Shown here: positions 23,340 through 52,150 of the stretch, in pieces | Position numbering within the stretch: position 1 is the first letter of the stretch | Layout: each line of letters starts with the position of its first letter | DNA from: Pontederia crassipes | Taxonomy: Eukaryota; Streptophyta; Magnoliopsida; Commelinales; Pontederiaceae | Reading direction: 5' to 3' | DNA: 64,000 bases | Assembly: GCA_030549335.1 (NCBI GenBank) | Contig: CM060196.1 | Location: 9,563,501 to 9,627,500, forward strand | Made by a program: the position numbers and the translations under genes | The notes under the pieces: generated by a model | Databases searched by the model: none | What the model saw: only the letters and a program-made list of their open reading frames with translations | What the model was told of the DNA's origin: nothing

Positions 23340-23745
23340 TGTTGAGCAAAAATGGTCGACCGATACCATTTCGGACGTCCGATTTAGTTCGACAAGAGTA
23401 TAGCATCAGCTATAATGGACGATCATTATTGTAACGGTCGATCATTATAGATCAGCACAGAAGCCCGAAAACCTTTCGGACGACCGAACTAGAAAATGTC
23501 GAGACTTAACAATGGCGACGATGATCAATTGGCGACCGATACCATAAATGGTCAACCGTTCTGGGTCTCCTCGTCGGAATAACTTCCGACCGTCGACGAA
23601 GAAATCTGACCAATCGTTGATGGAGAAGATGACACTGTTCATAACGGACGACCAAATCCCCCTCAAGGTCGACCGATAGTATGATTATGAAATGAATGAA
23701 GAATGAACATCAAATAGTCGACCGCTACCCTTTCGGTCGATCGAA
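23340..23745. repeat. GGTCGACCG motif array in gypsy LTR
   Basis: GGTCGACCGATACC at about 23352, GGCGACCGATACC at 23531, GGTCGACCGATAG at 23669, AGTCGACCGCTACCCTTTCGGTCGATCG at 23717 (two abutting motifs), plus half-sites (TTTCGGACGTCCGA, TTTCGGACGACCGA, CGACCGTCGACGA). They come every 30-70 bases. Confidence 0.8.
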
Positions 23746-23941
23746 AGATTAATAAATGAGCATCTGTTTCTCCTATCGGACGACTGCTGAATGGACCTAT
23801 AATGGAAGATAACATGATTTGTTATCTGGACCGTTATGTGGACAGAAGAGAACATGATTCTAATCGAACTCCTCTGATTTATAAAGCTTCTGTCCACCTG
23901 ATTTGTTAAAGAATGAAATGAACTTAAAGAAGATTAGAAGC

Positions 23942-24125
23942 AATGCTCCATACGATTTGACCAATCTATGGATTGGAAGAAAGGCCCATATGATTCGGAG
24001 CTTTGCTCCATACGGCCTTGATCAATTTACGGATTGAAAGATAGGTCAACATGATTTGGAGCTATGCTCCATACAATCTTGATCGATTTTTGGATTGAAA
24101 GAAAGGTCTATTATGACGGGGGAAG
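23942..24125. repeat. 61-bp tandem repeat, three copies
   Basis: (A/T)TGCTCCATACRATTT..ATC..GGATTGAAAGA(A)AGG recurs at about 23943, 24003 and 24064 inside the LTR. Confidence 0.8.
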
Positions 24126-24449
24126 TTAAGCGAGCCCTGAGCAAGGCATTTCCTCACGGGTTATCATTTGTCCTATCTAGATGGGAGTTTCTCCTTTATG
24201 GATTGGGTTAGCATGCTATAAACTCGGGTCGAGTTCAAAGAAATTTGGGATGGGTAGTGAAATGTCGAGAGATTCAATATTCGACATCTACTAACCTGGA
24301 CCGAGTTTAGGATAAATTGGCCAGTTCCATGGACTTGGGTCGGGTGAAGTATGGCCCGGTCGAGTTTTGTGTTGAACCCGTGCTGGGTTTAATCGAACTC
24401 GGGTCAAGTTCATCTAGTATAACAACATGGCAAAAATATGTAGACTGAG

Positions 24450-24729
24450 CCACAACATGAAATCATATACAAATAAAACATTATAATTGTTACGTAAAGA
24501 GGGAGAGAGATCGCACGAATACGGAAGAACACAAAGATTTACAAGATTCATCCTAAATTGAGCTACGTTCTCGGGCGGCAACGACATGGAATAATGACGA
24601 TTACAAGAATGCGAGATAACCTAGTCGTCGTGGAGTTTATATAGAGAATTCCAATAAGAATATCTGCTGAAGCGCTTGATTATATAGGAGTCACATAGGA
24701 TTATAATTAGGTTCAGATTAGGCATTATC

Positions 24730-24782
<53 letters not shown>

Positions 24783-24840
24783 TAATAATCTACTGGCACA
24801 CAACAAAAATCAACGATGAACTATCACAATGATGTTAACA
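24450..24840 (-). mobile_element. Copia-type LTR remnant, minus orientation
   Basis: Contains AAGAACACAAAGATTTACAA followed by CCTAAATTGAGCTACGTTCT, the common copia U5 phrase in antisense, and a minus-strand TATA (CTCTATATAAACTCC, complement of 24633-24647). An AAT microsatellite lies inside. Neither end could be placed. Confidence 0.5.
24730..24789. repeat. (AAT)n microsatellite
   Basis: About 20 trinucleotide units with one interruption. It yields a poly-Leu frame on the minus strand that is not a gene. Confidence 0.92.
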
Positions 24841-25600
24841 AGAGTTTTGAGATGCAACAAAATAAATAATCACTTAGTTGCCTTTCATCATTAGCTGTAA
24901 CTTAAACAGAGCATTTATTATCATGGATTAGAAGAGCACAATTCGGTTTCACAACATGAAGGGTAATAACATCTTATGGGTTTGTTCAAGGTTTAAGGCA
25001 GATTTATTTTGGAAGAAGATTATTCGGTGATTCTGATTGTTCAGTTTGTCTCCTTATTCCTACAGATCAAACGTCTTATTGACGGTCCTGGATGTCGCGT
25101 CCTCTACTGTCCGGGAAGGAATTCGTGAGAGAGAGAGAGGGGGAAAGGCAAACCATGAGAAAGAAGAGTGGAATTCGTACCATGTTCATTCCTTCCACAA
25201 TTCTGATGAAATTGGTTGGATTATCGGTTTTTAACTCTCATATTTTTGGGGGATTTATTTTGGTGGGATTTAATCCATTGATAGGCTGTTACACGACTCC
25301 CTTCTCTTATAGCCGATCAATGGTTTTTTTTTTTTGTGTGTGGTTATTTTCGGTGATTGTTACAGATGTTCAATCTGTACATAATTTTATTATTAATTTA
25401 TTGATCAGTCAAAAAGTCTTTATGATCTTCACGTGACGTACTCTATGTAAGTTGCGATGGTTATGACCGTCCCCTTCGGTTTATCTGCCAAGTTGCCATT
25501 GACACTCTTATGTAATAAACTTTTTTTTTTCTTATGGTTTTGATGAACAGTGACACATCATTACCGAATAGCATAGACATTTTAGCCTTTAAATATGTTA
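24841..25600. other. Spacer with unassigned frames
   Basis: Two overlapping + frames at 25037-25436 carry an RERERGG stretch from a GAGAGA run and no known domain. Nothing else is supported. Confidence 0.4.
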
Positions 25601-25619
25601 AAAGATAATGCTTAATAGT

Positions 25620-26110
25620 TAAAAGTCTGTTTGGTGCATTACCGATTTAATTAATCAATAATTTAGATCATCACTTAAATATATTATTATTATTTAAATT
25701 ATCGATAATATTATATTATATTATTTGGTAAGCATTGAAAATATAAATCATGACTAAAATAGTTAGAGAGCAAATTACTAAAATACCTCTAAAAATTATT
25801 TTACATGTTCAACATATAGTATCATAAATAAATAAAACAAAAAGTTAATATAAATAAAATGAGATGAGTAAAAAATAATAGTTATTTATAAAAGATTCAA
25901 ATAATTAAATGATATTTATTTAATAATAAAATATTGAAATTAAAAAAAATTATGAAATAAATATTTTTGTCAAAATATATGTCAAGCAACTGATAATATG
26001 AAAAGTCACTTCTCATGCCTGTTATCTGAATTATCAGTGAGGTGATAATTAAAATTATGAGAGCAAGTGAAATTATCGATAATTAATGATAATTAAACAA
26101 AGTAATATGG
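25620..26110. mobile_element. Possible MITE
   Basis: The left end TCTGTTTGGTGCATTACCGA with AATTAATCAATAATTT roughly mirrors the right end (reverse complement TTTGTTTAATTATCATTAAT, TATCGATAATTTC). The interior is A/T-rich and non-coding. The inverted repeat is imperfect and no target duplication is clear. Confidence 0.33.
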
Positions 26111-27326
26111 TGAGCTCTAAAAATTTTAAATAAAATAATCGATAATCTATCTGAATTATCTCGTACGAAACTGTCCCAAAAAGTAATTTGATTATATCTT
26201 AACCATCGTGCTAGTAGGAATTTTATGTTGCGACTTCCTAATTATGGAGTATTTTCGATAATTATAACTCTTTCCTCGACTCAGTCACCCATTTAAATAT
26301 TTTTTCCCTTGCCAACGTTCGAGCCCAATGAGAATAGAAGTCACCTCGTTATTCATTAGGAAATTTTAGTAATGATCATTTCTCAATATATTCATTCAAC
26401 TTTATTTTACATTAATATTACAATCATCAAATTTTAAAAATATTTTAGTCGTAGACGTCACTCGTTTATCGGTGGATCACCAATGTGACGCAAACATAAA
26501 TGCCTACGTAGCATCACATCAATATTTTATCTCTCTTACGCGTTAGATTTAAAAAAAATGACACATCAATAATTTTCTCTATCCTTCGTGCAAACTTAAT
26601 TTTATATATGTATAGCCATTCAATTTTTCATTCAGACATGATCATTCAACTTTTTTAAATTATAGTCACCATCATCATTAAAATTTAAAATAAAAAAAAT
26701 AAAATAAAATAAAAATAAAAAAGGATAGAAGCTTTGTAAGGGGCTACTAAAGATGGATTTTTGAGTCATGAAGAACCATGCTCGAATCAATCAATTTTGA
26801 TCGTGTCAAGTCAGCACAATTCGTATTCGTGCCATGTTGAAAGGTACTTGGATCGACCCGGTATGGTTTGGGCATGGAATTGGATTTGGAATCAATTTTA
26901 CTAAATGACTATTATAAGAAGAAAAAAAAACTTTGTTAGGCTATTTACTAAATGAAATTTAAAAGTAACATTTCATAATTTATGAGTGAGATCTATAGAT
27001 TTTCTATTTATAGTACAAATTCAATTTGAGACTTGATTGACATAAAATAATTGATAAGTATTTATTGGTTGAAACTTATATTTAAAATAGATAATTATGC
27101 ATATGGATAAAACTACTAATATCAATAATAACTAATTAAATGATATAACTAACTCATTTATAAGCGTCACTATTGTCATTCTAAAAAATTATTATTATTT
27201 CAGCGTGTTTATTTTATGAAACTGTCTTTTTTTTTCAAATGACTTGTTTATAAGCTTAGCCAAAGGGGCTAAGGCCAAAAGCTTATTAGTCCATCCGAGT
27301 GATGTCTAGATTGTGTCCGATGGAAG
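26111..27326. other. AT-rich spacer, nothing recognised
   Basis: No coding or RNA gene. A short A-rich run at 26685-26725 and a slightly GC-richer patch at 26760-26880 remain unexplained. Confidence 0.45.
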
Positions 27327-28285
27327 CAGTGGCGGAGCCACATGGGTGCCAGTGGATGCACACACTGGATAAGTAGTACGATACTAGTAGTTTAGCAAAT
27401 GTTATCATAGTTTGGTGCACATAGCACACTAAAGAAGGTTGCCAGTTCAAACATGCATTCCACATGTTTTTAGGAGTTTTCATCATCTGCTTTATTTTCT
27501 CACAAAAAATATACACATGCTAATTCTACATGTTCATTTATTATTTTATTCAATATTTAAATTACTTTTGTAAAGCTTAATTTTTCCAACCTAATATTTT
27601 AATTTCTCTAATATTAATTCGGTTGAGGAAAAAACTTATCAAAGATAATTTGAATATGTAATGTTTTGATTTATCTTGTTCAATTCTATATCATCATAAT
27701 CTAATAATTTATATGTTAGATATATACATCTAACATTATTATTTTTATTTCATATTCATACTTACTTTTACATTGAAATAATTTTAGATTAATTAACAAT
27801 AATGTGAAATAATATCTTGAAAAGCAATATTCATTCAAAAAATATATTTATAATTTTTTTTAGTTTAATTGGATCACTATTTAATTTTTACATTAAAATT
27901 ACTATTTAATACTATTTTCTATATCATCGGGAGAATACATTTCTTGATCATGCATTTGAGTATATATTTTTTAATATCAATTCTTATTTAAATGTTTATG
28001 AATATTTCTAATTATATAGAACTAAAATTAAAATAATTTTATTCTTATTTATCCTAAAAAATGAATATTTTAAAAATAAATTAAATGTTAAAAATGAAAA
28101 AAAATACATATTGTATATTAATAAACATATTATTTGTGAACCTACCTAATGAGTTGGCTGGCTGGGTGGAAGTTAATTGTTTGGGCCCACCCACCAGGTA
28201 CATAAAAGAATAAAATAACATGTGCAGCAAATAAACTATGCCTTGCTTGTTCATCCTTAATAGCGTGCGAGTCATAGATCCGCTG
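27327..28285. mobile_element. Putative hAT-like non-autonomous element
   Basis: The left end CAGTGGCGGAGCCACATGGG is a terminus seen in many plant non-autonomous elements. The right end GAGTCATAGATCCGCTG reads CAGCGGATCTATGACTC on the other strand. The interior is AT-rich and lacks coding. No matching target duplication flanks it, so the right boundary is uncertain. Confidence 0.45.
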
Positions 28286-28623
28286 TCACCTTCACAAAAG
28301 CAGCAAGCAAAGTAGAAGGCAAAAGCTTAGTTCCCACGATTGATTAGTAGAATTGCATTTGACTGACTCGTTGGAAATTAAAAGTTTTATGATCGGAAGC
28401 TATCATTTGATTAGAAAATATCATTCCATTCTTTTATCTCGATTTCGAATTAATTAAATAGTAACAATCTTGAATACTAAACTCCAAATGGGTATCAAAA
28501 GAGAAGCAATAAAAGGCAAAGAGTAAGCAGACGGAGGACAGGCAGCTACTTTATTTATTCCCTCTGCAAAGAATCCCAACGATTCCATTTGTAAAGCCCC
28601 TCCCGGCCTCCCTAAAATTCTTC

Positions 28624-28630
28624 TATTTAA
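28624..28630 (+). promoter_or_regulatory. Candidate TATA box
   Basis: TATTTAA lies 50 bases before the ATG of the plastid TPR-like gene, in a GC-rich proximal region (GACCCGGCCGCACCGGAGAC). Spacing allows a short 5' UTR of about 20-25 bases. Motif only. Confidence 0.4.
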
Positions 28631-31657: not shown

Positions 31658-31659
<2 letters not shown>

Positions 31660-32344: not shown

Positions 32345-35228
32345 TGTAACACTCCCTAAATTAGCTCCATGACACATATCGTGAGCAGGTTCCAAAATGC
32401 ATTACACGTTGATTCAAAGTCAACATAACATAGTAATATTAAAATAGCGGAACAATAATATTTAAATATTATTCTACTATTTGAAAACGAAGAGATAAAA
32501 TATAATTGGCCATAGAATATTTAAAAATTATTCTACTAAGTCCAATGTCATCAAGTATACCATGACGGATAGCCCAAACACATAAAGACTCAACGTTTAC
32601 AAGTAAGTCTAACTCCAACATAATCCATAATAAAGGCCCGTAGGCTGACTCATATACCCATAAACAATATGAAGTACTAAGGTCAATGCGAGGCCGACAT
32701 CATGTGCTAACCGTCGTCATGAGCTGGCCATCGACTTCAACCTACTTTTCTATATCTGCACGAACCCGAATGCAAGGGAGGTTCATCTCTCATTAGTTGT
32801 ATTTAAGGAACATAATTAAAATCAATAAAATATGATAAAGGCAGTACTCTGAAATATGTCGATAAACTATTCATGAACAATTCAATTCCATTCGATAACA
32901 ATGACTTCGTTTGCATTACATTAAATGCTCATACGATATCAATCAATGGCTAGTCGATAAATGATTGCATTAACACTTAATGCCCGTGAACGATAACAAT
33001 GTCGATTCTAGCCATTTATAATTCAAGTGATCTTTTTACTAATTCTAAAGTTAGCAAACATTAGCAATCAATATTAGATGAATCCTTTGATGTGTTGTGG
33101 TGCTTGGTTGACCTCAATGCCATGAGGGGCTGGCCAATCCAAATTGACACTCCGAAGTCGTGTCAATTCATAATCCCACATCCGGATCCATGAGTATACA
33201 TATATACATAATAATAGTCAAATTCATTGAAGTCTAAGCTTAAACCACAATGTGTTCAATTCAATATAATTCATTTTAATCCTACGACTTAGCATGCAAT
33301 GTGAATTCTAAATAAGTAAATCCATCGCACAACAATCATGTCAATACATACATAAAACAAAGCATGACATAGCATAGCATTCTTATCGATAAAAACATGA
33401 CAACATGGCATAGCATAACATGATGTAAACTTGTGAACAATTGATAAGAGAATCAGAAAGTTCAATATGCAAAATCATATATTCGGTCGACCGGTCTATT
33501 TACCGATCGACCGATCGCACGACCGAATGAAATAGTGGCTTTCAGCCACTGTTTCACCCATCGGACCGATCGACTGCTCCCCTAAGCGGTTGACCAATTT
33601 AAATAGTGGCTTCCGACCTCATCAGTCGATCGGATTATCGACATCTCGTCCGAATAAAATAGTAGCGATAAAAGATAATGTTATGCATGAACCGGTCGAC
33701 ACTTTTGGTTTGATCAACCGATCTATGCAGTCTATTCGGTCAATCCGATGTCGCGTCCGATTTAAATAATAGCAATCAAGCATATAAAAACTCATGGACC
33801 GATCGAATGCTCGCCCTGACCGATCGATCGATTCATACGAGAATCATGGAGTCGATCACTTGAATCCAACGTCCATGAACACAATCTCATCTACAGGCAC
33901 CCAAGGCTCTACTTAACGTGTTCCATATGTTAAATATTCATAAACAATAATAAAATCGAGAGGAGAAACTACGATTTTCCAAAGTTGACAGATTCGACAC
34001 CTTGTCGATTCCATGTCCGTAACTCACTTCATGAGTCGCTAGATCGACTGATTCTAATTTATCTTCACATTCGACTCTTAGAGCAACATCTAATTTTCTC
34101 ATATTTTATCACTATTTACCCTCATAAATTCTCACAATGACTAAGTAATTACCATATCAACCAGTTTGACAGTTGAGCACTAAACAATTAATATCTCCCT
34201 ATGGACATTTCATTTTGTGAAAAGAAGAAATACTCCTCTATCCACCCCATAAGTTTTGTCCACATATTAGGTAAACACTAATTTTGGTAAATTTTCCAAA
34301 TCTGTCTCGTTGCTCTCCGAGGCAGTTTGATAGTAAGCTACTCTTTTGATCATAACTCTCAGTTCACAGCTTTAAATGAGATGAAACTAAAACCTTTGGA
34401 AACTTGATTTCGAGACCTTTCCAACCATATTCATACACGATTTTTTAGTAACAATAATATATTAAAAAACATGATAGAACATGATACATTAGATCTGGAC
34501 AGATTATAGATGAACATGTTTCTAACCCTTTGAATACATAACTATCATCGTACATCAACTTAGAACTAAGAAGACACGTTCTCAATGGAATTTAGGGCAG
34601 AAAGGTTCATGGGGATTACACATCTAATAAACAATCCATTCCATAAGTTGAAACATCTAATCCATGTGTTAGATGGATTAAAAGGGGTTCACCCTTACAT
34701 ACCTAGAGTTCTTGTCCCAAAAACCCCTCGAATCCAAAGTTGCTTCTTCTTCTTCTCTTCTAGTTGAATGCTCCTCTCTAATTCTTCCTTTCTGATTGGC
34801 TGCCTCTCCTTTCTTCTTCTTCTTACTTGGTCGTCTGCTATAAATAAGAGGGAGGAGTGAGTGAGGGAAAAGGGAGAGAGAGTGGGCTGCTCTTGTTGGT
34901 GTTCGGCTGGGAGGTTTGGGGGAGAAGAAATGAGTGAAGGTGAGTAAGAGAGAGAAGAGAAAGTAGAGGGTTTATTTTTTGTGTTTATTTTGTCTTATCC
35001 CGAATGACAAGAACGTCCTTCAACCACCCCCACTTTTAGGGGCATTATAGCTAACTTTTGCCTTTTTGTCTAAACTAACCTAAAAGTGCTTTTACTTTTA
35101 AGGGTGTTTAGTCCATTGATTAATCCTGATTTTTGGCTTTATATTCTCTTGTCACTTTTGCTAAAAAAACTAAATTTGCCTCTCTGTGTAAGGACATTTT
35201 TGTTCATTCAAGTTTTCTGAGTATTACA
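32345..35228 (-). mobile_element. 2.9-kb gypsy-type LTR, minus orientation
   Basis: On the + strand it begins TGTAACACTCCCTAAATTAG and ends CTGAGTATTACA, so it is an LTR read from the minus strand (TGTAATACTCAG ... GAGTGTTACA). A minus-strand TATTTATAG lies near 34842 and the GGTCGACC array is at 33480-33860. The pyrimidine-rich block 34740-34810 resembles the block flanking the hAT insertion at 46.4 kb, so it belongs to the same family as LTR 44223-55455. No coding region adjoins it and the flanking 5-mers GTTGG and TCTGC do not match, so it is not a clean solo LTR. Confidence 0.65.
33480..33860. repeat. GGTCGACC motif array in minus-strand LTR
   Basis: TTCGGTCGACCGGTCTATTT and ACCGATCGACCGATCGCACG at about 33482-33530, GACCGATCGACTGC at 33564, CCGGTCGACACTT at 33693, GACCGATCGAATGC and GACCGATCGATCG at about 33800-33830, alternating with AATAGTGGCTTTC-type spacers. 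Confidence 0.8.
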
Positions 35229-37844: not shown

Positions 37845-40092
37845 TGTAACATCTAATCATTTTTTTTAAATGATGAAATCAAGTTTCAGATGCCTGCTAT
37901 AAGGAGTAGGCACATCTTTTTTAACCCCCAGCAATGAGCTGGAAAAGTTAATATTATTTTTTTCTCATCTTTTTTTACACCAACACATGGAGAATGGTGA
38001 ATCTTTTCACCATCTTAACTTTTGAGATTTAGAGGACACAAATTCTCATTTTTTTCCTTTAAATTTCTAGTTGTCCTTTCTTTCTTTTATCTCCTCACAT
38101 CATTTCATTTTCCATATTGTTTTGGCTTCTCCATTGCTGTGGACTTCAATAGAAGACATTGGAGATGAGCTTGGAGGTGCTGGGAATGTGAAGGATGGAT
38201 GAGGAATATCTAGAGCCAGAATGAACTTGAAAGAATCTGAAATTCAATTAAAAAGGTGTGATTTTTTGGATCTAAGCCATGATGTGGGATTCTAGAGTTC
38301 AATGCATGTTTTTAAGGACCTTGATGTGCTTAGGAGGTATGCTAGAATTTGGGTAGCGTCATTGCCTATAAATGTTTGAACTTAAATTTCTAGCCTCAAA
38401 GTGATGAGTTTAAATGAGTTATATGCTGAAATTTATGTTTATGATTATCTTGATCACAATCTATATTCTATGATGTATTTTGGTGAATTTCAAGCATGAC
38501 TAAGATTGATTTTTTATATTATATCCCTCAGCTTTATATAGTAGTCTTAGATTCATGGAATTGGACTTAGGAATGCTATGTGATTATTCAAATTCTATTT
38601 ATATGATTACCCATAAGAAAGACCATGTTGGAATCTTATTTGATCTCTGTAATGATTATGTATGTGCTACGAATCAGACTGAAGAAATGGCTCTTATGAT
38701 GAATGAGGATATGGATATGAAAATGAAATGAAAATGAGGACTAAAAAATGGACTCATGTTACTTGCATGATATTTGATTATGAAATTGATTCTAAACTAT
38801 TATTGACATATGTTAATTAGATGCCAGTGTAGCATAAGAATGTTTGTAGTTTGAAAACTAATTGAGAGCTTAAGGATTTCCATATGACCTATAGTTCTAC
38901 CAAAGAGAAATAGACGATTGGTGTTAGTAGTGAACGTCTCTTCTTTAGTATAAAATAATTGTTATCATTTCGGACTGGTCCTTGTGGACTACTGGCAACG
39001 GACATATGCTATATTATGCAAATGAATGATATTATCATTCAGTAGATCGGCACCCTAAATTGGTTGTTCGGTAATCATTGTCAGAGATCAATAAACTATG
39101 AGTTGGATAGATCGGATGTCGGTCGACCATTTGGATGTCCGAAAGTGATGGTCAAAAGTTCGGAATTTTTTGGTCAAGTAAAATAATATATCTACTCAAT
39201 CTTTCAAGTTCTTCCAAATTGCACCCAACCTTGAAACGATCGAACGATGTTATCGTGATCGGACGTAAACCTCTTAATGACTGGATGACCAATCAATCTT
39301 GTGTACATCTGGACAAGGAATATGAATTACCTGAATCCCTAATAAGAACCTAAGTCAAATCAATTGTCTTAATTTCATACTTTTCATATGATGCATAATG
39401 CTGATTGGGAGTTGTTGTTGCTCCCATAAGTTTTGATTTGGGTTCTTTGTGTTTAAAAGATAGAATGATAGATTAAAAAATAAAAAAAAATATGAAAAAG
39501 GAGTATTGTCGTTGTCTATACCTATGTAAGGAGAATTAAATAGTGGTAGTGATGATGATGATAGTAGAGGGAGTGAAATGAAATGCAAAACAATGAACCT
39601 ACACAGCCCTAAACAATGAAATGGATTCCGCTGAAGCACTGATGCATCCTTCCTTTATTATAGGGCACCCACCATGGTGTTGATCCACCATTGGTTATGA
39701 TGCATAAGTTGGTACTTGATTTGTATGGCATATCCTAAAGTGGATAACTCTTTCAATTATATGAATGATGAAAAAAATGAATGAGATAAACAAAAAGATG
39801 GAAAATATTATATGATAATGAACATGGAACAATGATAAATTAAATTTGTTTTCAAATAAACGACGAACTATCAAATGAATCTTATCAAAGATCTAAAATG
39901 GAATCTTTCCATCATAGTCATCCATTAATTCTCATATCATGTACCTTCACATATAAATTGTTGTTTGAATTAAATTGGACTTAAAAGCGTTACATGGCAT
40001 GTATTTTATTTTCATTGTTTCTCTTATATGAAGATCCTTATGAGCTTGTAAGATAGTCGTTGTTTTATTCATGCTATTATTTAAAGGTTCTT

Positions 40093-41184
40093 CTTTATAA
40101 CGAGTAAATTACGCCAAATGCCCTCCAACTTTGGCCGCTTTCTCAGTTATACTATCCAACTTTACTTTGTAACACGAATGCCCTCTATCTTTTAACTCGT
40201 TTCACATGTGCCCCCCTTACTTGTGATCGGCCGTCTCTCGGTCACGGAGCTGACGTGGCACTAACACGACGTCTTCTCTCCTCTTCACATAAACATATCA
40301 ACGTGGTAATATTAAAATAATTAAAAACATAAAAAATGCCACGTAGTCGCCCTCCTCCTTCTGCGACGGTCGCTGGAGGGGGCGACCCTCCTTCTCTAGC
40401 ACGCCGGCAGACACACGTGCTGGCCCTTCTCGTCGAAGCTCGCAAGGGGTTGCCCCCCGCCCCCTTGAGCTCTGGCGCAGGCAGGCAAAGGGAGGGGGGT
40501 CACCCCTGCTAGAGCTCGCAGGGGGGCCTTTTGTTTGCGTGTGCGCGTCGGCGATGCATGCAAGCAGAGGGAGGGGTGGGTGGGGTCCCCAACTTTTTCC
40601 TGCAAAGGGAGGGGACCCCCTCCCTCATCGGAGCTCGCAGGTTGGGCGACACCCCCCCCCCCCATTTGCCTATGTGTGCGCGTCGACGACGCATGCAGGT
40701 AGAGGGAGGGGGGTCGCCCCCCTTGTGCTGGCAACGCTCGCAATTGGGGGGGGGGGGGGGGGGTCACCCCACCTACGAGCTCCGGCGAGGGAGGGGGATG
40801 GGGGCTCCCCCCTCATCGGAGCTCGCGAGCTCCGGCGCCTGCATACGTGGACGAACGACGCATGCAGGTGTCGCCCCTGCATGCGTCTCTACTGGCGCGA
40901 CAGAGGAGGGTCGCCCCCTCCGGTGGTCGCCAAAGGTGGCAGGCACTTTTAAATTTTTTAATATTACGACGTCATTGTCATATTTTCATGGAGAGGAGAA
41001 AAGATGTCATGTCAGTGCCACATCAGCTTCGTGACTGGGAGACAGCCATTTTCAAGTAAAGAGGGCACCGGGTGAAATGAGTTAAAAGATGAATGACATT
41101 CATATTACAAAGTGAAGTTGGAGGATATCGCTGAGTAAACATCAAAGTTGGAGGGCATTTGACGTAATTTACCCTCTTTATAAC
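40093..41184. mobile_element. Mutator-like element with long TIRs and 9-bp target duplication
   Basis: CTTTATAAC flanks both sides (40093-40101 and 41176-41184). The element is 40102-41175. Its left arm GAGTAAATTACGCCAAATGC then CCTCCAACTTTGG is matched in inverted form on the right (AGGGTAAATTACGTCAAATG, CCTCCAACTTTG), and similarity continues for about 200 bases each side (ACTTTGTAACACGAATG, TCTTTTAACTCGTTTCAC). Long TIRs plus a 9-bp duplication are the Mutator signature. The middle, 40360-40930, is very GC-rich, with ~137-base imperfect repeats (GTGTGCGCGTCG..GCATGCA near 40535 and 40675) and a run of about 22 G at 40745-40764. No transposase: non-autonomous, maybe Pack-MULE-like. Confidence 0.85.
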
Positions 41185-42139: not shown

Positions 42140-43269
42140 TGTAACGCCCTAGGGTTTTGAAAAAAGTTGTAAATACTTTAAAAAAGAATGACATTTTTGT
42201 CTTGTGTAGGGCAGTAGTAGCCAACAGAAGTGAAACCGAAGAAAATAAAATATAGATTAATCGATAAATCAATGATGGGTCGATCGAATGCAAGACCGAA
42301 GTAAACAGAACACGGAGACAATGAAGAAATCAATGACCGATCAAACGCTCGGTCCACCGGATGCACGACCAAATAGAACAGAAGACATAACAAGTCTAAA
42401 GCTGGTCATAGGACTGGTCGATCGACTATGCATCCGAATTGAACAGAGAGTTAAAACAAATGAAAATAAGGAACCAGTCGTAGGATCGGTCGATCGACTA
42501 TGCATCCAAATTGAACAGAGAGTTAAAAAAAGTGAAAATAAGGAACCGATCATAGGACCGGTCGATCGATCAATCAATCGAAATAAATAGTGAGATCAAA
42601 CGCTGTGGAAAATTCCTAACCGGTCGACACTTGTCAACTGGTCTGCTGACTCGACATGATCGGCTGTAGTAATAGCTATTTTTCATATCAAATCTTTTAA
42701 TTACTTTCCAAATAAGAAAGATGCCATGAAGTATGCTATAAAAGAAGTCCAGAATGAATGAAAAAAAATGATGAAGTGAGCACGAGCAATCAAGTAACAA
42801 AGGAAGGTCAATCTCATCATTTTTTCACTACAAAAGCCCTAGATTCATTTCTTCTCTTTACTGTAATCATTTGTGCAAAAGAGATATTGAGAGATATCTG
42901 TAAATTTGTATTATAGAAAGTTCCTGTGTGAAAAGATGATTGACTTACCTCTTGAGCAGAGAAGAAGTTGGTTCATGTGTAAAAGTGTTTCCTTCTCCCT
43001 TTGAAAAAGGAGGATGATAGAGAATCTTTGATGGTCTCAAGGTCGAGGTGTCAGAGCGGGAACGTAGGCCAAAGAGTTGGGTTGAACTTCATCAACAAAT
43101 CTTGTGTTTACTCTTTATCCCATTTTTGTTATCATTTTGCGTTAACTGCATTACATTTAGTATTCTTACAAAAAAACTTCTAAAAGTAAAGTTTGAAATT
43201 TCAAAATTTAAAAAGTTATACACCAATTCACCACCACCCCCTTCTCTCTTAGTGCCCAACAATCCTACA
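42140..43269 (+). mobile_element. LTR, copia-like in its 3' half
   Basis: Starts with TGTAACGCCCTAGGGTTTTG (a gypsy-like beginning) and carries a GGTCGATCG array at 42280-42600. Then comes TGCTATAAAAGAAG at about 42737 and a U5 with GGAACGTAGGCCAAAGAG and AAATCTTGTGTTTACTC, typical of SIRE-type copia LTRs. It ends AACAATCCTACA. A primer-binding site follows. The first part may belong to a different, older LTR; I cannot place a join. Only about 70 bases of internal sequence follow before minus-strand gag. Confidence 0.55.
42400..42600. repeat. 72-bp tandem repeat with GGTCGATCG core
   Basis: GGTCGATCGACTATGCATCC occurs at about 42416 and 42488 and GGTCGATCGATCAATC at 42560, spaced 72 bases, with GAACAGAGAGTTAAAA between. 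Confidence 0.82.
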
Positions 43270-43341: not shown

Positions 43342-44022
43342 TTATCCTTCTGCTTTACCTTCATGCTTCTTAATGACCTTTCCCTTGGCAATCTTTTTTT
43401 CCTTGTATTTCCTCTCATGTTCAGCGGCAAGTCCCACCGCATCCTTCAAGGTGGTGGAACGACCACTCATGACCCAAGATTGTAGTCCGGGATGCAAGCC
43501 ATTAATGAATCTCTTAGTCCTTCTAAGTTCATTCTCATTGAGTTCACCGTACTTTTTTAGCTTGAGGTATGTGCTCATGTATTGGTCTACCGTCATGTTT
43601 TCTTGGACGAGATTGAGAAATTCGTTCCTCTTCTTTTTCTTAATATGATCCGGGAAAAAGCGAGCTTCAAACAATTCCACAAAGTTTTCCCAAACAACAT
43701 CTTCTTCACTTTCAAGGGTAGTCTTCAAGAGAGATTTCCACCATAGTTTAGTTTGTCCACAAAGGCAATGTATAGCGTACATCACCATACGATTCTCGGG
43801 ACATTCCATCATTTTAAGGATATCCCCTATCTCTTCAATCCATGATTTGGCCAACTCGGGTTCTCCCTCCCCATTAAATCTTGGAGGGTCAAGCCTTAAG
43901 AACTTCTTAATGGAGTAATCTGATTCATTATTCCTTTAAGCATTTTGTGCCGCTCGAATTAATCCATCAAGGAAAGCATTCCTTTTATGATCCTCGTTAG
44001 CGATCATACGTCTTGGTGGCAT
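43342..44022 (-). mobile_element. Gypsy gag fragment, minus orientation
   Basis: Begins MPPRRMIANEDHKRNAFLDG near 44022 and continues to a retrotransposon gag domain: AKSWIEEIGDILKMMECPEN, YAIHCLCGQTKLWWKSLLKT, WENFVELFEARFFPDHIKKK, FLNLVQENMTVDQYMSTYLK, RRTKRFINGLHPGLQSWVMS. It lies about 200 bases downstream, in the minus sense, of LTR 44223-55455 and its primer-binding site, as expected for that element's gag. Protease and pol are missing; the element is cut at about 43340. Broken fossil. Confidence 0.82.
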
Positions 44023-44222: not shown

Positions 44223-45114
44223 TGTAACGCCCCCAAAATTTGGTCATAATTTAGTTGCTAAACCCTAGGCCACGTTACTTTCATAACCTAATTTCATAAA
44301 ATTATTGCAGCAGAAAACATGATAATAATAAACATAATACTACCATAAAACAACAGAAAACTTCATAAACTAAATAAATCCTAAGATACAATTCTAATCC
44401 ATGGGCCACAAAGGTTCTAACATAATACTCACATAGGGTTCAAGGTACATAAATGAGTTCATATAAAGTACATGACTCAAAAGCCCATAGGCTATACATA
44501 CTTGACTCACAAAGAATTCATCATCATAATATAAAAGTCGATAAGATAATTTGGGCCATAGCCCGACCAACTCATGTGCAATGTCGTCGTCATGAGGCCC
44601 TTGCCGTCGAGCCTAAGTCTCATCCATACTTGCACAGATCTATGGATACAAGGAACTTCTCCCGTTAGAGTATTTTGAGACTCATGCATGCTATGATCTT
44701 ATAACATGAATTCTACATGCCATGGCATATACATGTCATCATAATGGAAACATAAGACATATGCATGCTGTGTGTTATGTATGCACTCTACATGGCATGT
44801 GATTAATCATTAAGGCAAGATAAGATAAACATATATCATAATAAATATTACGCAAATGCAATATCATAACTTATCATTATGTTAAATATATCTTAACATA
44901 TCTTGCTTAACTTCATCTTTATTCGTATCATGAGACAAATGGACATTCATTTGCATCCTTATAGGTGCATATTTCTTCATACTTCTTCATCATCTTTAAT
45001 TTTATGGCCTAAGTCATTCACCATTCATCTTTTTGTCTTTCATCTTTACTTAGATACTTTTTTATTTTATTGATTGGGAAGACCATGTTGAATTCGTAGG
45101 AATTGGCTGGCAAG

Positions 45115-45260
45115 GCCATGAATGGGTCATCATTGGTCCAATTGAGATGCCATCACTTGGGGGTGAAACTCGCATCGACTTATGAAAATGCCACCACTTG
45201 GGTGTGGAACTCGTTTTCCCGAGAAATGCCGCCACTTGGAGGCAGAATCCATTTCCCCTC
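45115..45260. repeat. ATGCCRCCACTTGG short tandem array
   Basis: Three units of (G/A)ATGCC(A/G)(T/C)CACTTGG(G/A)GG..GAACTC at about 45148, 45188 and 45225, inside the LTR. Confidence 0.75.
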
Positions 45261-45439
45261 CTCGATTATAACAAGACACCTTCACGTAAATCCGTCTTTT
45301 AATTATATCCATCAATACATCCAATCATTCAATACATGTTGCATGTTTTAATCCTATTTAAAGTCATACATATGTCAATTCATGCTAAGTGTGGACATTC
45401 AATCATAACATAAGCATCAGCACCTAGATTCAAGTATCG

Positions 45440-45890
45440 GACGACCGAAAGTGTTCGATCGACCGTTATGAGCCTTATGGACGACCGAACTGGGTGTTGG
45501 ATCGACCGCAGATTACAGACAACAATGACCTTTCTAAATTGGACGATTGAAAGGGTTTCGGTCGACCGTTATGAGCCTTACGAACAACTGAACTTGGCGT
45601 TGGATCGATCACAGATTACAGAGAACAATGACCTTTCTAAATCGGATGATCAAAAGGGTTTCGGTCGACCGTTATGAGCCTTACGAACAATCAAACTGGG
45701 CGTTGGATCGATCGCAAATGACCTTTCTAATTCGGATGATCAAAAGGTTTTCGGTCAACTGTTATGAGCCTTTCGGACGATCGAACTGGGCGTTGGATCG
45801 ACCACAAATTATAGAGAACAATGACCTTTCTAAATCGAATGACTGAAGGGGTTTTGGTCGACCGTTAGAAAGGTGTCGAATGAACGAACA
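45440..45890. repeat. 103-bp minisatellite with GGTCGACCG
   Basis: TTTCGGTCGACCGTTATGAG recurs with GTTATGAGCC at 45465, 45568, 45671 and 45761 and a last unit at 45864; spacings are 103, 103, 90 and 103. Each unit has ACAATGACCTTTCTAAATCG and a second site CGGACGATCGAACTGG. Confidence 0.88.
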
Positions 45891-46914
45891 TAATCGATTC
45901 GATCGAAAGTGTTTCGGTCGTCCGTTCTAGGACGACTGCAACATCCATTATACATTTCTTCTTTCCAAACATTCTTGCATGGATGCATTGAGGACCGATT
46001 TTGTTTTGTTCATCATATGAATCATTCATCAACATTCTTAGTACACTAATCATAGAAACAAGTGGGGTTTTTGCATAATAACTTCCAATGTGCTAATCAC
46101 ATTCGTAGGTAAATAAGAACATGAAGTAATTACATTATGAGCTACACATAATTAATCAAAATGCATCATGAACTAAGCAAGATTATCAATGGAAAAATAA
46201 TTCTAATGCATCCATGGTGCAAAATGAAATAATCATGCATCGCCCAAATCATATCATTTAAGAAGATCTAAGTTGGTTTTCAAGTCCTTAGTCCATTTAT
46301 TCATACATCATTAAGGAAGATGAATGAAATTTTGAATACCATCAAATATACCTTAATAGCTAAGCTTATCTCTAACTTCTTTCTCTATTTTCGCTCTTCC
46401 TTTCCTAGCCGAACCAGTCTCTTTTCATTCCTTAAAGCCGTTGCCCACGAACTCCAATGGAATAGCTACAGTGATGTGGTGTGAGCAATGGTGTCAAACC
46501 CGGCCCGACCGGTCGGACCGGTGTCCGGCCAATAAAACGGGCCATGGGTCAGTCCAAATCCGGACTGCCCATTGACCCATGTTGGACCGGTCAAACCTGG
46601 TCAAAACTCGGGTTTGACCGCTTGACTCATCGGGTTTTGATGCCTGGCCGGTTCAAAAAAAAATTGAACACTCATGACTCAACTCAAAGAGGACCGGCCG
46701 ATTCATTTGGAAGAAAAAGAAAGTAGAAACCCTAGCCCTCATCCCTGGCGGGCGGCGGTCTGGTGCAGACGCCGCTGATCCGGCGATCGGCGTTCGTCAT
46801 TTGATAATCCGGCTTCGATCCAACGACGGGTGCCTTCGATCCACGTTCCAGGTTAGTCAATCTCATCCTTTTCATTGTCGATCTTGTCCATTTCGATTTT
46901 CGGCAATTTTGTTC

Positions 46915-47245
46915 GTTGGCCGACCAGGGCTGCGGCGGCGTCGCCTTGGATGGCCGTACCCTGACGCCACCAGGGCATGCCCTGGTGGCATCAGGGCGTC
47001 CTGGCTGGCCAAGGCGCACGCCCTTGGCGCGTCCAAGGTGCGCCTTGCCTGGCCAAGGGCTAGCCCTGGACGCGCCATGCCCTGGCCGGCCGCCAAGGCT
47101 TGGCGGCCCTTGGCAGCCAGGGGCCTTGCCGCCTAGGGGCTAGGGCATGCCCTGGCGGCCAGCCAGGGCAGCCAAGGGCTGGGCATGCCCTGGTCGGCCA
47201 ACGGCATGCCCTACCCTTAGCAGCATAGTGAAGGGCATGGCATGC
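46915..47245. repeat. GGGCATGCCC palindrome array in the hAT 5' region
   Basis: A perfect 24-bp palindrome lies at 46966-46989 (half-site GCCACCAGGGCA). Further GGGCATGCCCTGG copies lie near 47142 and 47183, with GCGCCATGCCCTGG near 47074 and GGCATGCCC near 47204. The region is very GC-rich and full of CCAAGG(C/G) and GGCCAAGGGC, unlike the AT-rich transposase exons after it. Confidence 0.82.
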
Positions 47246-48299
47246 GTTTATTAATTAATTTTTTATCAATTAATGTTATATATCTAATTATATTTATATA
47301 TTATTTTTTAGAAAATGGCATTAGGAGGGAGTAGCTGTGGTGAAACTCAAACACCTATTGGACAATCTCAAACACAATATACAAATGATAGTACTACATT
47401 AGCTCTGCTAGGTTCTCAAGCAGTAAGATTAAAGATGGATCCTGTATGGGAGCATTGTCAGATTTGTTTTGATGCACAGGGAAAAAAATCATTGAAATGC
47501 TTGTATTGTGGAAAAATTTTAAAAGGTGGAGAAATATATAGAATGAAACTACATCTTGTTGGAAAAAAAGAAGAGGCATTGTTGTAGAATCTCAAAGGGC
47601 ACCAAGAGGGGGGTGAATTGGTGTTTAACCAAAAATGTCGATTTCACAAAAACCGTAGCGGAAGTTTAAAATCGATTCTTAAATCCTTTACAATTCAGAT
47701 CATAAATTCAATATGAACGGGGGAGAGAGAGAGAAAATATCAAACACAACAGGCACGGTGGTTGTTGACGAGGTTCGGCCACACCTTGGCCTACGTCCCC
47801 GCTCCGACTTCTCGACCTCGAGACCGCCTTGGCCTACGTCCCCGCTCCGACTTCTCGACATCGAGACCGCCGGAGATTCCACTAGCACTTCCTTTGTTCC
47901 AAATGGGGCAAGGAAGAAAGCCCTTTACACCAACCACCTTTTCTCCACTTCGAGAGGCAAGGCAACCTCTCCTCCTAGGAAGTTAATTTATTTCTTTCGC
48001 TGAAGAGGTAAGATTTAGAACCTCTTTTACACAGGAGCTCTCTCTAATTTTTCTGAACAAAAGTGTTTATCTTTTTTACAAAGCTAAGCTCACAAGAAAA
48101 TAAGAGAGAAAGTAGAGAAAGCTATAAAATGAAAACTTCAAGAAAATGATCTCTCTTTAATAACTTGAAGCTTTTCTTCAATGAGTGAATGGGTGCTTTT
48201 GCCTCTGGCTTTAGCACTCCATTTATAGCCTTCAATGTGTGAAAAATTCGTCCAAAAATTATTTCACAAATTTCTCCTTCAAATTTGACCGTTACTGTT

Positions 48300-48610
48300 C
48301 ACTCGGAGGTCGGTCGACCGAAATTCTGGACCGATCGACCGGTCTATGTGACCGTTGTGCCATTTCTCCAGTTACCGCAGCTGGTCGGTCGACCGGACTA
48401 TGGACCGGTGTCTCGACCGGTACAGTCTCGCAATTTTAATTTAAAGCCGTTGAGCTGATCGGTCGACCGGTGCTTCGATCGAACTGTCGACCAGTATAGT
48501 CTCGACGTCGTCCGGAGTAGGCCTCATTAGTTATCGGTCGACCGGCATCTTCTATTCGGTTGACCGGTACGTCTCGATTGGCCTTCTTTGCATCGATCGA
48601 TAGGTTGACC
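48300..48610. repeat. GGTCGACC array in the copia 3' LTR
   Basis: GGTCGGTCGACCGAAATTCT and GGACCGATCGACCGGTCTAT at 48309-48342, GGTCGGTCGACCGGACTATG at 48384, GATCGGTCGACCGGTGCTTC at 48459, TATCGGTCGACCGGCATC at 48533, TTCGGTTGACCGGTACG at 48556. In the element's sense all lie upstream of the TATA (minus-strand GGCTATAAATGGAG near 48220). Confidence 0.88.
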
Positions 48611-49633
48611 TACCTGCACTATTTTGATCATAACTTTCTGCACGGTTATTTAAATTAGATTATTTTATAGTCTATGGAAAGCTAACAGAATTCTCTACAA
48701 CTTTGCTGAGAATATTCATCCAAAATCTAATCATTTCATAGTCAATTATGTAATCAAAATTTGTACATAAAGTTATCTCTTTTTCTTTGCCTTTTTCAGC
48801 ATTTTAATCTTTTGAAGTTTGTTTCATCAAAATATAATTTCATATGTCATTGAAACTTTGACCCAATAATCTCCCCATTTTTTATGAAGACAAACCGAGA
48901 AATATGAAAAATATATAAACTGTGAAAAAGTTATAAAATTCTTGTACAAGCAATTTTACTCCCCTTAACACGTAGCTTTCCTTACAATGGTAGATATTCA
49001 TATAAATATTAGTTGTAAGGTACTTTTCATACAAAGCGATATTCATATCATATTTCTCCTATACTTCTCCCCTTTTGTTTCATCAGAAAAAAGTTTATAT
49101 ATGAAGCATATAAGAAATCATATATAACTCCCCCTTAGTAAAAAATTATTCTTCCCCATTTTTGTCATATAATAGATATGTAGAGTAATGTAGAGTATTG
49201 CAAGTTTTGAAAGATAACTCCTTCTAAATTTATGGCTATTTTATAATGAAAACCAATTTATGAAAGCCAAAAACAAAAATGTATTAGGAATCAAAATATG
49301 GCATAAAACTTTGATCCAACAATGATGTCTATGATATGTCAAAATAAAGTTTAATCATGCTCCCCTATTACTATTACCAATTTTCATTTATATGTTCCTC
49401 TTTTTTTAAAAAAAATTGTAGCTTTGAATTTTTTAGTGACATAAAAAATAGATGATAATTTTACCATAACCTTTGTGCCCTCACATTTTCAACTCCATAT
49501 GTCATTTGCATGTGAGGCATACCTGAAAAGAAATCAAGTAATTTTTTATACCCAAACTTTCTTGGGTCCGATTTTGTTAGATAATATTCCTTTCGGAACT
49601 CAAATCATGTCATGTTGTAATGATTTTCTTATT

Positions 49634-51019
49634 TTACATTGATATGCACAATGGCCATGAAATCCGCATGTAAAACATTTGAGATGTGATTTTTCTATGT
49701 TTGGATTTCCAATAAAAATTTTCATGTCCAAAATGATTCCTAAGATTATTTGTCGTTACATGAGAAATAGTCTTATTTTGTGAGTTTTTCAAAGGGTCAT
49801 TTTCCTTCTTTACCTTGTCTAAAGAACATGCTAGTTTTACAATTTCACATGCATGTGTAATTTTTAAAATTTCAATTTCATTTTTGAAATTTTCATTTTC
49901 CATAAGACATATATCCTTTTCTTCTTTTAATTTTTCAATCTCATGTATTAACTTCTCATTTTCTTCTTTAAGTGAGAAATATCTTTTTATAAAAGATGAG
50001 AGTTCTTTATTCACATCTAATGAAAGAGCTTTTTCGGAAGAGTTCGATGAATTATAATTTGAATTTGAAGGATTAGAAAGTACCTCATCGTCCTGTGCCA
50101 TCAAACATATGTATGATTCATCGTTAGAAGAGCTTGATGAACTACTTGTTTCACTAGACTCTTTATATTTTTTCTTTTTATCTTTCCGGGATTTTTCTTC
50201 TTTGTGATGCTTGTATGATTTTCTTGTTGGCTTCTCGTTATTGTCTTTCTTCTTAACCAACTCGAGATACTTATCCAATTTTCTTGTGTAGAGTGCGAGT
50301 TTCTTTTCATCCACTTCCTCTTCGCTTGAGTCTTCTTCTATTGTATTTGCCTTCAATGCCAATGTTTTCTTCTTGGGGGCTTTTTCTTTTTGATCTTCTT
50401 GAATTGAGATCTCATAAGTTAGAAGTGAACCAATAAGATCATCAAAATTCAATTTGGTCAAATCCTTTTCTTCGATTATGGTCATCTTCGTATGCCATTT
50501 GGAGGAGAGAGACCTGAGAATCTTTTTCACTTTTTGGGGGTTAGATCTTGGCTTGCCCAAAGAGGCTAAGCCATTCAAAATATCATTAAACCGAGCTACT
50601 ATATCATTTATGGATTTATTTTTATGCATTTTGAAAGAATTATATTGATGGTTTAAAATATTCAATCTAAATTCTTTAACCTTGTCGGTTCCTTCATTAG
50701 TGGTGATGAGCTTCTTCCAAATCTTGGTTGAAGATTCACAACTTGAAATCCGATTAAACTCCGAAGAATCCAAAGCACAATAAAATATATTTTTCGCTTT
50801 CCAATCAAGTATTGAAAAAATCTTTTCTTTTTCTTTAGAATCAGTAAGTAACTTTTCATGAACATAAAAACCTTTTTCAACTATTTTCCACATGTCGATA
50901 TCAATAGAACAAATATATGCTTGAATTCTAATTTTCAAATATGCAAAATTTGATGCATTTAAAAGGGGAGGACGACTAATATATTGTCCTTCGGCAAAAC
51001 TAAATCCGCTTGATGCCAT
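49634..51019 (-). mobile_element. Copia-type gag frame of the nested element
   Basis: A 461-codon frame starts MASSGFSFAEGQYISRPPLL, shows a UBN2-type gag domain (FAYLKIRIQAYICSIDIDMW, KNIFYCALDSSEFNRISSCE, IWKKLITTNEGTDKVKEFRL, SINDIVARFNDILNGLASLG, VKKILRSLSSKWHTKMTIIE), a Lys/Glu/Ser-rich linker and a coiled segment (SLKEENEKLIHEIEKLKEEK). This order fits SIRE-type copia gag. The zinc-knuckle region near the end is degraded. Beyond it KIGPKKVWV, the usual phrase before pol, is still visible, but pol itself is absent. Confidence 0.87.
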
Positions 51020-51819
51020 GGCTCTTGAAGATTGTTAAATCTTTAAAACAAGATGATTGAATATTAAAAATGATTAGATCTGAAAATGAGAAGATTCAAA
51101 AGATCAAAACAAGAGCAACCCGCTCTGATACCAATTGTAGGATCCCAAAGGGCACCAAGAGGGGGGTGAATTGATGTTTAACCAAAAATATCGGTTTCAC
51201 AAAAATCGTAGCGGAAGCTTAAAATCGATTCTTAAATATTTTACAATTCAGATCATAAATTCAATATGAACGGGGGAGAGAGAGAGAGAAAATCAAACAC
51301 AAAAGGCACGATGGTTGTTGACGAGATTCGGCCGCACCTTGACCTACGTCCCCGCTCCGACTTCTCGACCTCGAGACTATCGGAAATTCCACTAGCACTT
51401 CCTTTGTTCCAAATGGGGCAAGGACGAAAGCCCTTTACACCAAACACTTTTTCTCCGTTTCGAGAGGCAAGGCAACCTCTTCTCGTAGGAAGCTAATCTA
51501 ATTTTCTCGCTCAAGATGTAAGATTTAGAACCTCTTTTACACAGGAGCTCTCTCTAATTTTTCTGAACAAAAGTGTTTCTCTCTTTTACAAAGATAAGCT
51601 CACAAGAGAAGAAGAGAAAGTAGAGAAAGCTATAAAATAAAAACTTCGAGAAAATGATCTCTCTTTGATAACTTGAAGCTTTTCTTCAATGAGTAAATGT
51701 GTGCTTTTGCTTCTGGCTTTGGCACTCCTTTTATAGTCTTCAATGTGTGGAAAATTCGTCCAGAAATTATTCCACAAATTTCTCCTTCAAATTTGACTGT
51801 TACTGTTCATTTGACTCGG

Positions 51820-52150
51820 AGGCCGGTCGACCAAAATTCTGGACCGGTCGACCGGTCTATGTGACCGTTGCGTCATTTCTCCAGTTACTGCAACTAGTCG
51901 ATCGACCAGACTATGGACCGGTGTCTCGACCAGTATAGTCTCGCAGTTTTGATTTAAAGCCATTGAGCTGATCGGTCGACCGGTGCTTCGACCGGACTGT
52001 CGACCGGTGCTTCGATCGGACTGTCGACCGGTATAGTCTCGATATCATCCGGAGTAGGCCTCATTAGTTATCGATCGATTGGCATCTTCTATTCGGTCGA
52101 CCGGCACGTCTCGACCGGCCTTCTTTGCATCGACCGGCAGGTTGACCAAC
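51820..52150. repeat. GGTCGACC array in the copia 5' LTR
   Basis: GGCCGGTCGACCAAAATTCT and GGACCGGTCGACCGGTCTAT at 51821-51861, GATCGGTCGACCGGTGCTTC at 51970, then CGACCGGACTGTCGACCGGT and a further copy of that 24-base unit not seen in the other LTR, and TTCGGTCGACCGGCACG at 52094. The TATA in the element's sense is GACTATAAAAGGAG near 51735, downstream of the array. Confidence 0.88.

What the first reader, a model, noticed from the sequence alone, without database searches (positions are those of the whole stretch)
23340..52150. GGTCGACC palindrome arrays shared by copia and gypsy LTRs
The CpG-rich palindrome (C)GGTCGACC(G), with variants GGTCGATCG and CGACCGGTCG, is arrayed in at least six LTRs here: gypsy-type at 23.34-23.74, 33.48-33.86, 38.9-39.25 and 45.4-45.9 kb, a mixed or copia-type one at 42.3-42.6 kb, and both LTRs of the copia-type element (48.3-48.6, 51.8-52.15 kb). 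The surrounding LTR sequence of the two superfamilies is not otherwise alike. In the copia LTRs the array lies upstream of the TATA; in the gypsy LTR at 32.3-35.2 kb it seems to lie downstream. Exchange or convergence on one host-recognised sequence (a transcription factor site, a methylation target or a pairing site) would explain it.
Basis: partly seen in the sequence, partly recalled or inferred. Interest (0 to 1): 0.72.

Follow-up and report, generated by a model that had tools for sequence, protein, structure and literature searches.

The report
Shared palindrome arrays in retrotransposon LTRs
Two unrelated superfamilies of plant jumping genes carry arrays of the same short palindromes in their control regions, often paired about 21-22 letters apart, and one pair of families shares a whole array, as if both had adapted to one host protein.

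Summary
GGTCGACC occurs 16 times in the window against 0.23 expected, and CGGTCGACCG 41,473 times in the 1.13 Gb genome against 1,245 for a palindrome of identical dinucleotides. Arrays lie in copia and gypsy LTRs; one claimed case (39.1 kb) is a two-site remnant. The copia part is known: Sirevirus 'RM boxes' (Bousios 2010), where CGGTCGACCG is listed for a Vitis element.

Three things go beyond the passages I could read. (1) The boxes also occur in at least three gypsy LTR families. (2) One gypsy and one copia family share an array by descent, spacers included, inverted relative to transcription; the other 44 pairs of array groups show no clear spacer similarity. Related gypsy LTRs can carry another CGG-CCG palindrome, CACGGCCGTG, at the same place. 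(3) Exact sites pair at 19-24 bp 5,583 times, against 97 at 25-30 and 48 at 13-18. One copia family and two single LTRs lack this excess.

Best reading: docking arrays for a dimeric host DNA-binding factor, assembled repeatedly and exchanged at least once. RNA-hairpin action is not excluded; the factor is unknown.

The parts
23353..23786 (+). palindrome array in a gypsy (chromodomain-type) LTR, + strand element; LTR start about 22473, read by eye
   Evidence: 10 sites up to 2 mismatches; ORF 22055-22480 Chromo and SH3_Tf2-1, 20308-20901 RT_RNaseH, 20902-21303 Integrase_H2C2
33484..33830 (.). palindrome array in an LTR-like stretch 32346-35222 with gypsy-like ends; no partner LTR, orientation unsure
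   Evidence: 8 sites; ends read by eye; no LTR pair
39120..39246 (+). two-site remnant, not an array
   Evidence: 57 bp at 82% to the 23 kb LTR
42277..42630 (+). array with 72-bp units in a copia LTR (about 42260-43265), family copia3; no excess of 19-24 bp doublets
43342..43935 (-). gypsy gag ORF
   Evidence: PF03732 1.9e-15, PF19259 6.8e-9
44226..46475 (-). gypsy LTR, family gypsy1 (5' LTR, transcribed on the minus strand; outer end approximate)
45438..45924 (-). array of about 103-bp units, alike to the copia2 array but inverted relative to transcription
47582..48870 (-). 3' LTR of copia1 element; array 48311-48566; TATA about 48227
   Evidence: LTR pair, 86%; array; TATA
48871..49640 (-). 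several polypurine-tract-like runs before the 3' LTR, a Sirevirus hallmark
   Evidence: five purine runs of 8 or more with at least four G; mean 1.46 in 330 tiles of the window, 19 tiles reach 5
49634..51034 (-). copia gag ORF of copia1; the only ORF of 150 aa or more listed inside the element
   Evidence: PF14223 1.1e-26; ORF list
51135..52404 (-). 5' LTR of copia1; array 51824-52103; TATA about 51735; C-rich signal near the LTR end

Best explanation
The arrays are clusters of dyad-symmetric CGG-CCG protein-binding sites, the 'RM boxes' of Sireviruses, used as cis-regulatory docking arrays by LTR retrotransposons of both superfamilies in this plant genome. Shown: the enrichment; presence in copia and gypsy LTR families; no detectable common spacers between most array groups; one array shared by descent between a gypsy and a copia family, inverted; two different palindromes used at the same LTR place; doublets of exact sites 19-24 bp apart, mostly 21-22. 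Inferred: each palindrome binds a symmetric protein dimer, two dimers sit about two helical turns apart on one face of the DNA, and a host factor (activator, or one that counters silencing) is thereby recruited. Selection for that factor would explain repeated assembly, and recombination between elements the one exchange.
For: Genome counts 41,473 against 1,245 and 211; CACGGCCGTG 7,384 against 203 reversed. Equal 6-bp windows of centre spacing between exact sites: 13-18 bp 48, 19-24 bp 5,583, 25-30 bp 97, 41-46 bp 2,717; of the first 50 places listed 7 are at 20 bp, 17 at 21, 20 at 22, 5 at 23, 1 at 24. In held loci 14 different spacers at 20-23 bp fall into 11 clusters. Families with an excess at 19-24 bp that none of 500 random placements reaches: gypsy1 with palindrome 1, 76 of 155 spacings; gypsy1 with palindrome 2, 18 of 39; gypsyG 41 of 87; copia1 12 of 23; copia2 21 of 66. 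Same gypsy flank, other palindrome. Array homology gypsy1-copia2 only. CpGs inside sites are kept at least as well as other CpGs between LTR pairs, 65 of 77 against 115 of 164, p 0.018, significant in one of three pairs.
Against: No binding, methylation, small-RNA or expression data. Copia3 shows no 19-24 bp excess (3 of 40, random 2.7), and the single LTRs at 23 and 33 kb are not significant (3 of 9; 2 of 7). The peak is not one exact distance: 20 of the 21 copia2 spacings in the range are 19 bp, and gypsy1 has 35 at 19 bp, while exact sites elsewhere peak at 21-22. In gypsyT the main array lies downstream of the TATA-like box in 3 of 5 loci, unlike in copia1 and copia3. Arrays also fold unusually stably as RNA (z -2.9 to -13.7), as an RNA-level role would predict. 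Related copies are not independent, so family totals overstate the evidence. No known plant factor was matched.
Confidence: 0.6

Rival explanations
1. The palindromes act at RNA level: neighbouring self-complementary sites form hairpins (10-bp stem, 10-13 nt loop) that feed small-RNA production or serve genome packaging or dimerisation.
For: Five arrays tested fold more stably than 30 dinucleotide shuffles each (z -6.6, -4.6, -2.9, -6.3, -13.7); two LTR flanks tested do so little or not (z -0.3, -1.6). Palindrome-rich Sirevirus LTR regions in maize are described as sRNA hotspots (passages of PMC5311732 and PMC10760457).
Against: Any palindrome array folds, so z alone does not separate the two. 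Neighbouring sites of mixed arrays (CACGGCCGTG beside CGGTCGACCG, eight cases 20-24 bp apart) and variant sites of gypsy1 (CGGACGACCG beside GATCGACC) cannot pair fully with each other yet keep the spacing.
Confidence: 0.2
2. Neutral spread: a few families happened to carry the repeat and amplified it; the shared motif is inherited or accidental.
For: Copy number of the families inflates the genome count; gypsy1 and copia2 do share one array by descent; tandem units of 72 and 103 bp show local duplication.
Against: 44 of 45 pairs of array groups show no clear spacer similarity; the CpG-rich palindrome persists although CpGs decay; the spacing peak spans many different spacers; a second palindrome keeps the same spacing in gypsy1.
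Confidence: 0.1
3. The arrays are targets of an element-encoded anti-silencing protein, in the manner of VANC proteins and their tandem-repeat targets in VANDAL transposons, so that elements of both superfamilies share or parasitise one such protein.
For: VANC targets form rapidly diverging tandem repeats in noncoding regions (abstract of PMC10398659). The same gypsy LTR place can hold different palindromes, and a seemingly non-autonomous family carries arrays (no ORF of 110 aa or more in L035, L039, L040).
Against: No candidate gene was sought or found; motif and element class differ from VANDALs.
Confidence: 0.1

Closest known systems
Sirevirus LTR repeated motif, 'RM boxes' (Bousios et al. 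2010, PMC2829016)
   Same: Palindromic, CGG-CCG core, many copies in LTRs upstream of the TATA box; the consensus of the Vitis element is exactly CGGTCGACCG (section 9 and term passages).
   Different: Described there as Sirevirus-specific, in a comparison of Ty1/copia elements. Here it also occurs in gypsy LTRs, two palindromes alternate, one array is shared across superfamilies, and a spacing rule is seen; my term search of that paper found no site spacing, though a word search can miss it.
[quoted passage not shown] 2016)
   Same: LTR palindrome clusters in a copia genus, linked to sRNA mapping and rapid evolution, as cited in passages of PMC5311732 and PMC10760457.
   Different: The paper itself is not held and was not seen, so a spacing rule or gypsy case there cannot be excluded.
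VANC-target tandem repeats of VANDAL transposons
   Same: Short repeats arrayed in noncoding transposon DNA and diverging fast (abstract of PMC10398659).
   Different: DNA transposons in Arabidopsis with a known element-encoded binder; none identified here.

Membership tests
Sirevirus RM boxes | dyad-symmetric repeat with CGG-CCG core | tested here: met
   CGGTCGACCG and CACGGCCGTG both carry it
Sirevirus RM boxes | at least eight copies per element | tested here: inconclusive
   gypsy1 LTR in the window has 10, copia1 LTRs 7 each, copia3 6, at up to 2 mismatches
Sirevirus RM boxes | array upstream of the TATA box | tested here: inconclusive
   met in copia1 and copia3; not met for the main array in 3 of 5 gypsyT loci; no TATA word found in the gypsy1 window LTR
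Sirevirus RM boxes | carried by Sireviruses (copia) | tested here: not met
   gypsy1, gypsyT and the 23 kb LTR belong to gypsy elements. They look like RM boxes, but the genus restriction fails
Sirevirus RM boxes | borders of predicted CpG islands; further copies upstream of env | not tested
   no CpG-island prediction was run and no env region examined
Sirevirus (genus), copia1 | several PPT copies before the 3' LTR | tested here: met
   five G-rich purine runs in 770 bp against a mean of 1.46 per window tile, 19 of 330 tiles reach five; four with GGGG against 0.32, 5 of 330 tiles reach four
Sirevirus (genus), copia1, copia2 and copia3 | C-rich integrase signal near the LTR end | tested here: met
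   runs of five or six C near the LTR ends of W47, W51, L008 and W42; one copia3 copy, L076, has none of four or more
Sirevirus (genus) | RT/RNaseH phylogeny | not tested
   copia2 has gag_pre-integrs, rve and SH3_retrovirus domains and a weak RVT_2 match (E 0.006, below cut-off); no tree made
Ty3/gypsy chromovirus, 23 kb element | gypsy pol with C-terminal chromodomain | tested here: met
   PF00385 8.2e-6, PF17917, PF17921
VANC-type target | binding by an element-encoded anti-silencing protein | not testable with these tools
   no binding data

The most novel reading that the evidence does not exclude
One host DNA-reading system, which recognises paired CGG-CCG palindromes about two helical turns apart, is a common entry point for copia and gypsy elements. 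Selection for it drives independent assembly of arrays, switching between palindromes at a fixed LTR place, and transfer of an array between superfamilies in inverted orientation, so that LTR control modules evolve apart from the elements that carry them.
Probability: 0.35. Interest if true: 0.8.

Novelty: new variant of a known kind. Interest (0 to 1): 0.62.

Why it matters
If one host factor reads these arrays, tens of thousands of sites in the genome (41,473 exact ones) are its decoys or enhancers, and unrelated transposons compete for it. The spacing rule gives a precise, testable handle: a doublet probe with 21-22 bp spacing could identify a binder; the 2010 paper reports that no common binding factor could be named. 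Transfer of an array between copia and gypsy would show that regulatory modules can cross the superfamily border.

Tried and rejected
Nested insertion of a copia LTR into the gypsy LTR: rejected. No copia2 LTR flank was found in the 13 gypsy1 loci searched, nor a gypsy1 flank in the 8 copia2 loci, at E 0.01. Six of those 8 copia2 loci are 621-bp array slices, so the second half of this test is weak.

Direction of the exchange: not resolved. Array units of the two families form two separate groups (43 gypsy and 26 copia units, support 97/96, 76 columns). A first tree held no copia units and a second had overlapping units; I use neither.

W-box by deamination (GGTCGACC to GGTTGACC contains TTGACC, a recalled motif): not pursued. 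In the spectrum of single changes 134 of 211 are C-to-T type, and the commonest other change is T to A at position 4, 44 cases.

Methylation-target reading: CpGs in sites do not decay faster than others, but only one of three LTR pairs is significant alone, and sites are defined by similarity to the motif, which favours kept CpGs.

Adjacent tandem GGTCGACC as a microsatellite: rejected. The 16-mer has only 23 places in the genome.

Papers: a letter search found the 2010 RM paper. Searches for gypsy or chromovirus cases listed none that I recognised by title or abstract; the library holds only open-licence papers, and I read only the passages named. Passages of PMC6911290 (insertion at palindromes) and PMC11656987 (binding sites in LTRs) did not bear on the motif. 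(U3 evolution) was seen as a listing only. Arrays like CACGGCCGTG in cotton gypsy LTRs are recalled, not checked.
Full report
WHAT IS THERE. The window is part of a plant-like 1.13 Gb genome (C14:9563501-9627500). GGTCGACC occurs 16 times against 0.23 expected. Genome-wide CGGTCGACCG has 41,473 places, its reversed form 211, and CGGACGTCCG, a palindrome with the same dinucleotides, 1,245. The first 100 places on contig C1 fall into 40 clusters. I looked at 23 of these 40: 17 through loci L005-L034 and six picked for their many sites or for having a pair (L036, L038, L041-L044), so the set is not random. By similarity 14 are gypsy-type (8 gypsyG, 5 gypsyT, 1 gypsy1), 6 copia-type (4 copia1, 2 copia2) and 3 unassigned (L005, L006, L020).

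HOW THE SUPERFAMILIES WERE CALLED. Copia1: Retrotran_gag_2 in the window, several polypurine tracts and a C-rich signal near the LTR end. Copia2: in one copy, with two presumed LTRs 9.2 kb apart start to start, the inner DNA holds gag_pre-integrase, rve and SH3_retrovirus domains; RVT_2 is weak, E 0.006, below cut-off; the RNaseH-like ORF had no Pfam match and is read by eye. Copia3 (42.3 kb): copia-like U5 and primer site read by eye, and similarity of its downstream part to copia1 and copia2. Gypsy1 (44.2-46.5 kb): Retrotrans_gag and Ty3_capsid; L036, alike over 726 aligned bp, lies beside an RVT_1 ORF (L037). GypsyT: SH3_Tf2-1 domain of a gypsy pol beside the array LTR in L041, four others by similarity. 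GypsyG: seemingly non-autonomous, called gypsy only because its polypurine region resembles that of gypsyT by eye; this is the weakest call.

KNOWN PART. Bousios et al. 2010 (PMC2829016: abstract, section 9 and term passages read) describe palindromic repeats with a CGG-CCG core in Sirevirus LTRs upstream of TATA, absent from the other copia elements compared. One of the thirteen listed is CGGTCGACCG (Vitis). The copia arrays here look like new members of that kind.

EXCHANGE. The gypsy1 array and the copia2 array share their spacers. After masking sites of up to 3 mismatches, 96 of 104 sequence pairs (13 gypsy by 8 copia) give a match at E 10 or less, best 42.0 bits, 3 pairs at 40 or more; the reversed control has 13 of 104, best 23.5. 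Unmasked, 86 of 104 pairs reach 50 bits. The match is on the plus strand when copia2 is written in its sense and gypsy1 against its sense, so the array is inverted relative to transcription. No copia2 LTR flank was found in the gypsy1 loci; the reverse test is weak because six of eight copia2 loci are array slices. Units of the two families form two separate groups, so the event looks single and old; its direction is open.

INDEPENDENT ASSEMBLY. Among 45 pairs of ten array groups only that pair exceeds its control clearly (42.0 against 20.4 bits); the others reach at most 28.1, the controls at most 29.7. Short spacers limit this test: very old shared ancestry could have faded. Ten groups are not ten families: gypsy1 enters twice, once for each palindrome, and three groups are single LTRs.

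SWITCHING OF PALINDROMES. Of the 11 relatives cut out with the gypsy1 U5/R flank (L062-L072; the search scored 40 of 3,602 candidates), eight (L063-L070) carry CACGGCCGTG-type sites, 2 to 10 each; in five of them (L064, L065, L066, L068, L069) I read the sequence and the sites follow the same flank that precedes the window's array. L071 has a partial match to the window's array, L072 looks mixed, and L062 was not resolved. Sixteen loci were cut from the search with the window's array (44 matches, 40 of 767 candidates scored); the 15 that are not the window copy each also match a gypsy1 flank. Of five gypsyG loci tested, four mix 9-12 sites of the second palindrome with 3-5 of the first, and L019 has one of each. 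CACGGCCGTG has 7,384 places in the genome against 203 for its reversed form; that control differs in CpG content.

SPACING. Genome-wide counts of two exact sites by centre distance, in windows of six positions: 13-18 bp 48, 19-24 bp 5,583, 25-30 bp 97, 41-46 bp 2,717, with 0 to 1 in reversed controls. Part of the 41-46 bp count contains a middle site. Within families the 19-24 bp share is 49% (gypsy1, palindrome 1), 46% (gypsy1, palindrome 2), 47% (gypsyG), 52% (copia1) and 32% (copia2), above all 500 random placements. It is 8% in copia3, no more than random, and not significant in the two single window LTRs at 23 and 33 kb (52 and 91 of 500 placements reach them). Of nine single loci, L002, L016, L036, L038 and L041-L044 are each reached by 0 to 5 of 500 placements and L006 by 9; L005 gave no cluster. 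In copia2 the favoured distance is 19 bp (20 of 21), and gypsy1 with palindrome 1 uses 19, 21 and 22; these two share one array and are not independent.

MECHANISM. Dyad symmetry plus a spacing of about two helical turns is what one expects of symmetric protein dimers binding side by side on one face of the DNA; the 19-bp cases fit this less exactly. The array may lie upstream of TATA (copia1, copia3) or mainly downstream (L041, L042, L044 of five gypsyT loci; L043 has no TATA word and L016 only AT-rich ones) and may be inverted, which suits an enhancer-like array. RNA hairpins remain a real rival: five arrays fold with z -2.9 to -13.7, against -0.3 and -1.6 for two flanks. CpGs in sites survive at least as well as others between presumed LTR pairs, 65 of 77 against 115 of 164, which speaks weakly against a pure methylation sink.

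VERDICT. The kind is known in copia; the gypsy cases, the switching and the spacing rule are new as far as the papers I could read show.

Noticed in passing
52613-53323: ORF with DUF659 (7.4e-55), often found in hAT-type transposase-like proteins (recalled), directly beside the copia1 5' LTR; a 119-bp tandem repeat at 53214-53457 lies at its end.
   Followed up: no
40095-41183: Inverted repeat of about 235 bp (78%) around a GC-rich interior: probably a terminal-inverted-repeat element.
   Followed up: no
63160-63585: Three 141-bp tandem copies, 98% alike.
   Followed up: no
42141-42270: A gypsy-like LTR start (TGTAACGCCC) directly precedes the copia3 LTR part; a relative, L075, has a copia-type start instead (by eye), so this is probably a truncation junction.
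   Followed up: partly
L035, L039, L040: Inner parts of gypsyG elements: no ORF of 110 aa or more, yet about 80-88% alike among three copies: a seemingly non-autonomous family alike in noncoding sequence.
   Followed up: partly
23932-24108: 61-bp tandem repeat just downstream of the palindrome array in the 23 kb gypsy LTR.
   Followed up: no
11813-12937 and 57063-57647: Inverted repeat pairs (about 456 bp, 79%; 219 bp, 88%), perhaps small transposons.
   Followed up: no
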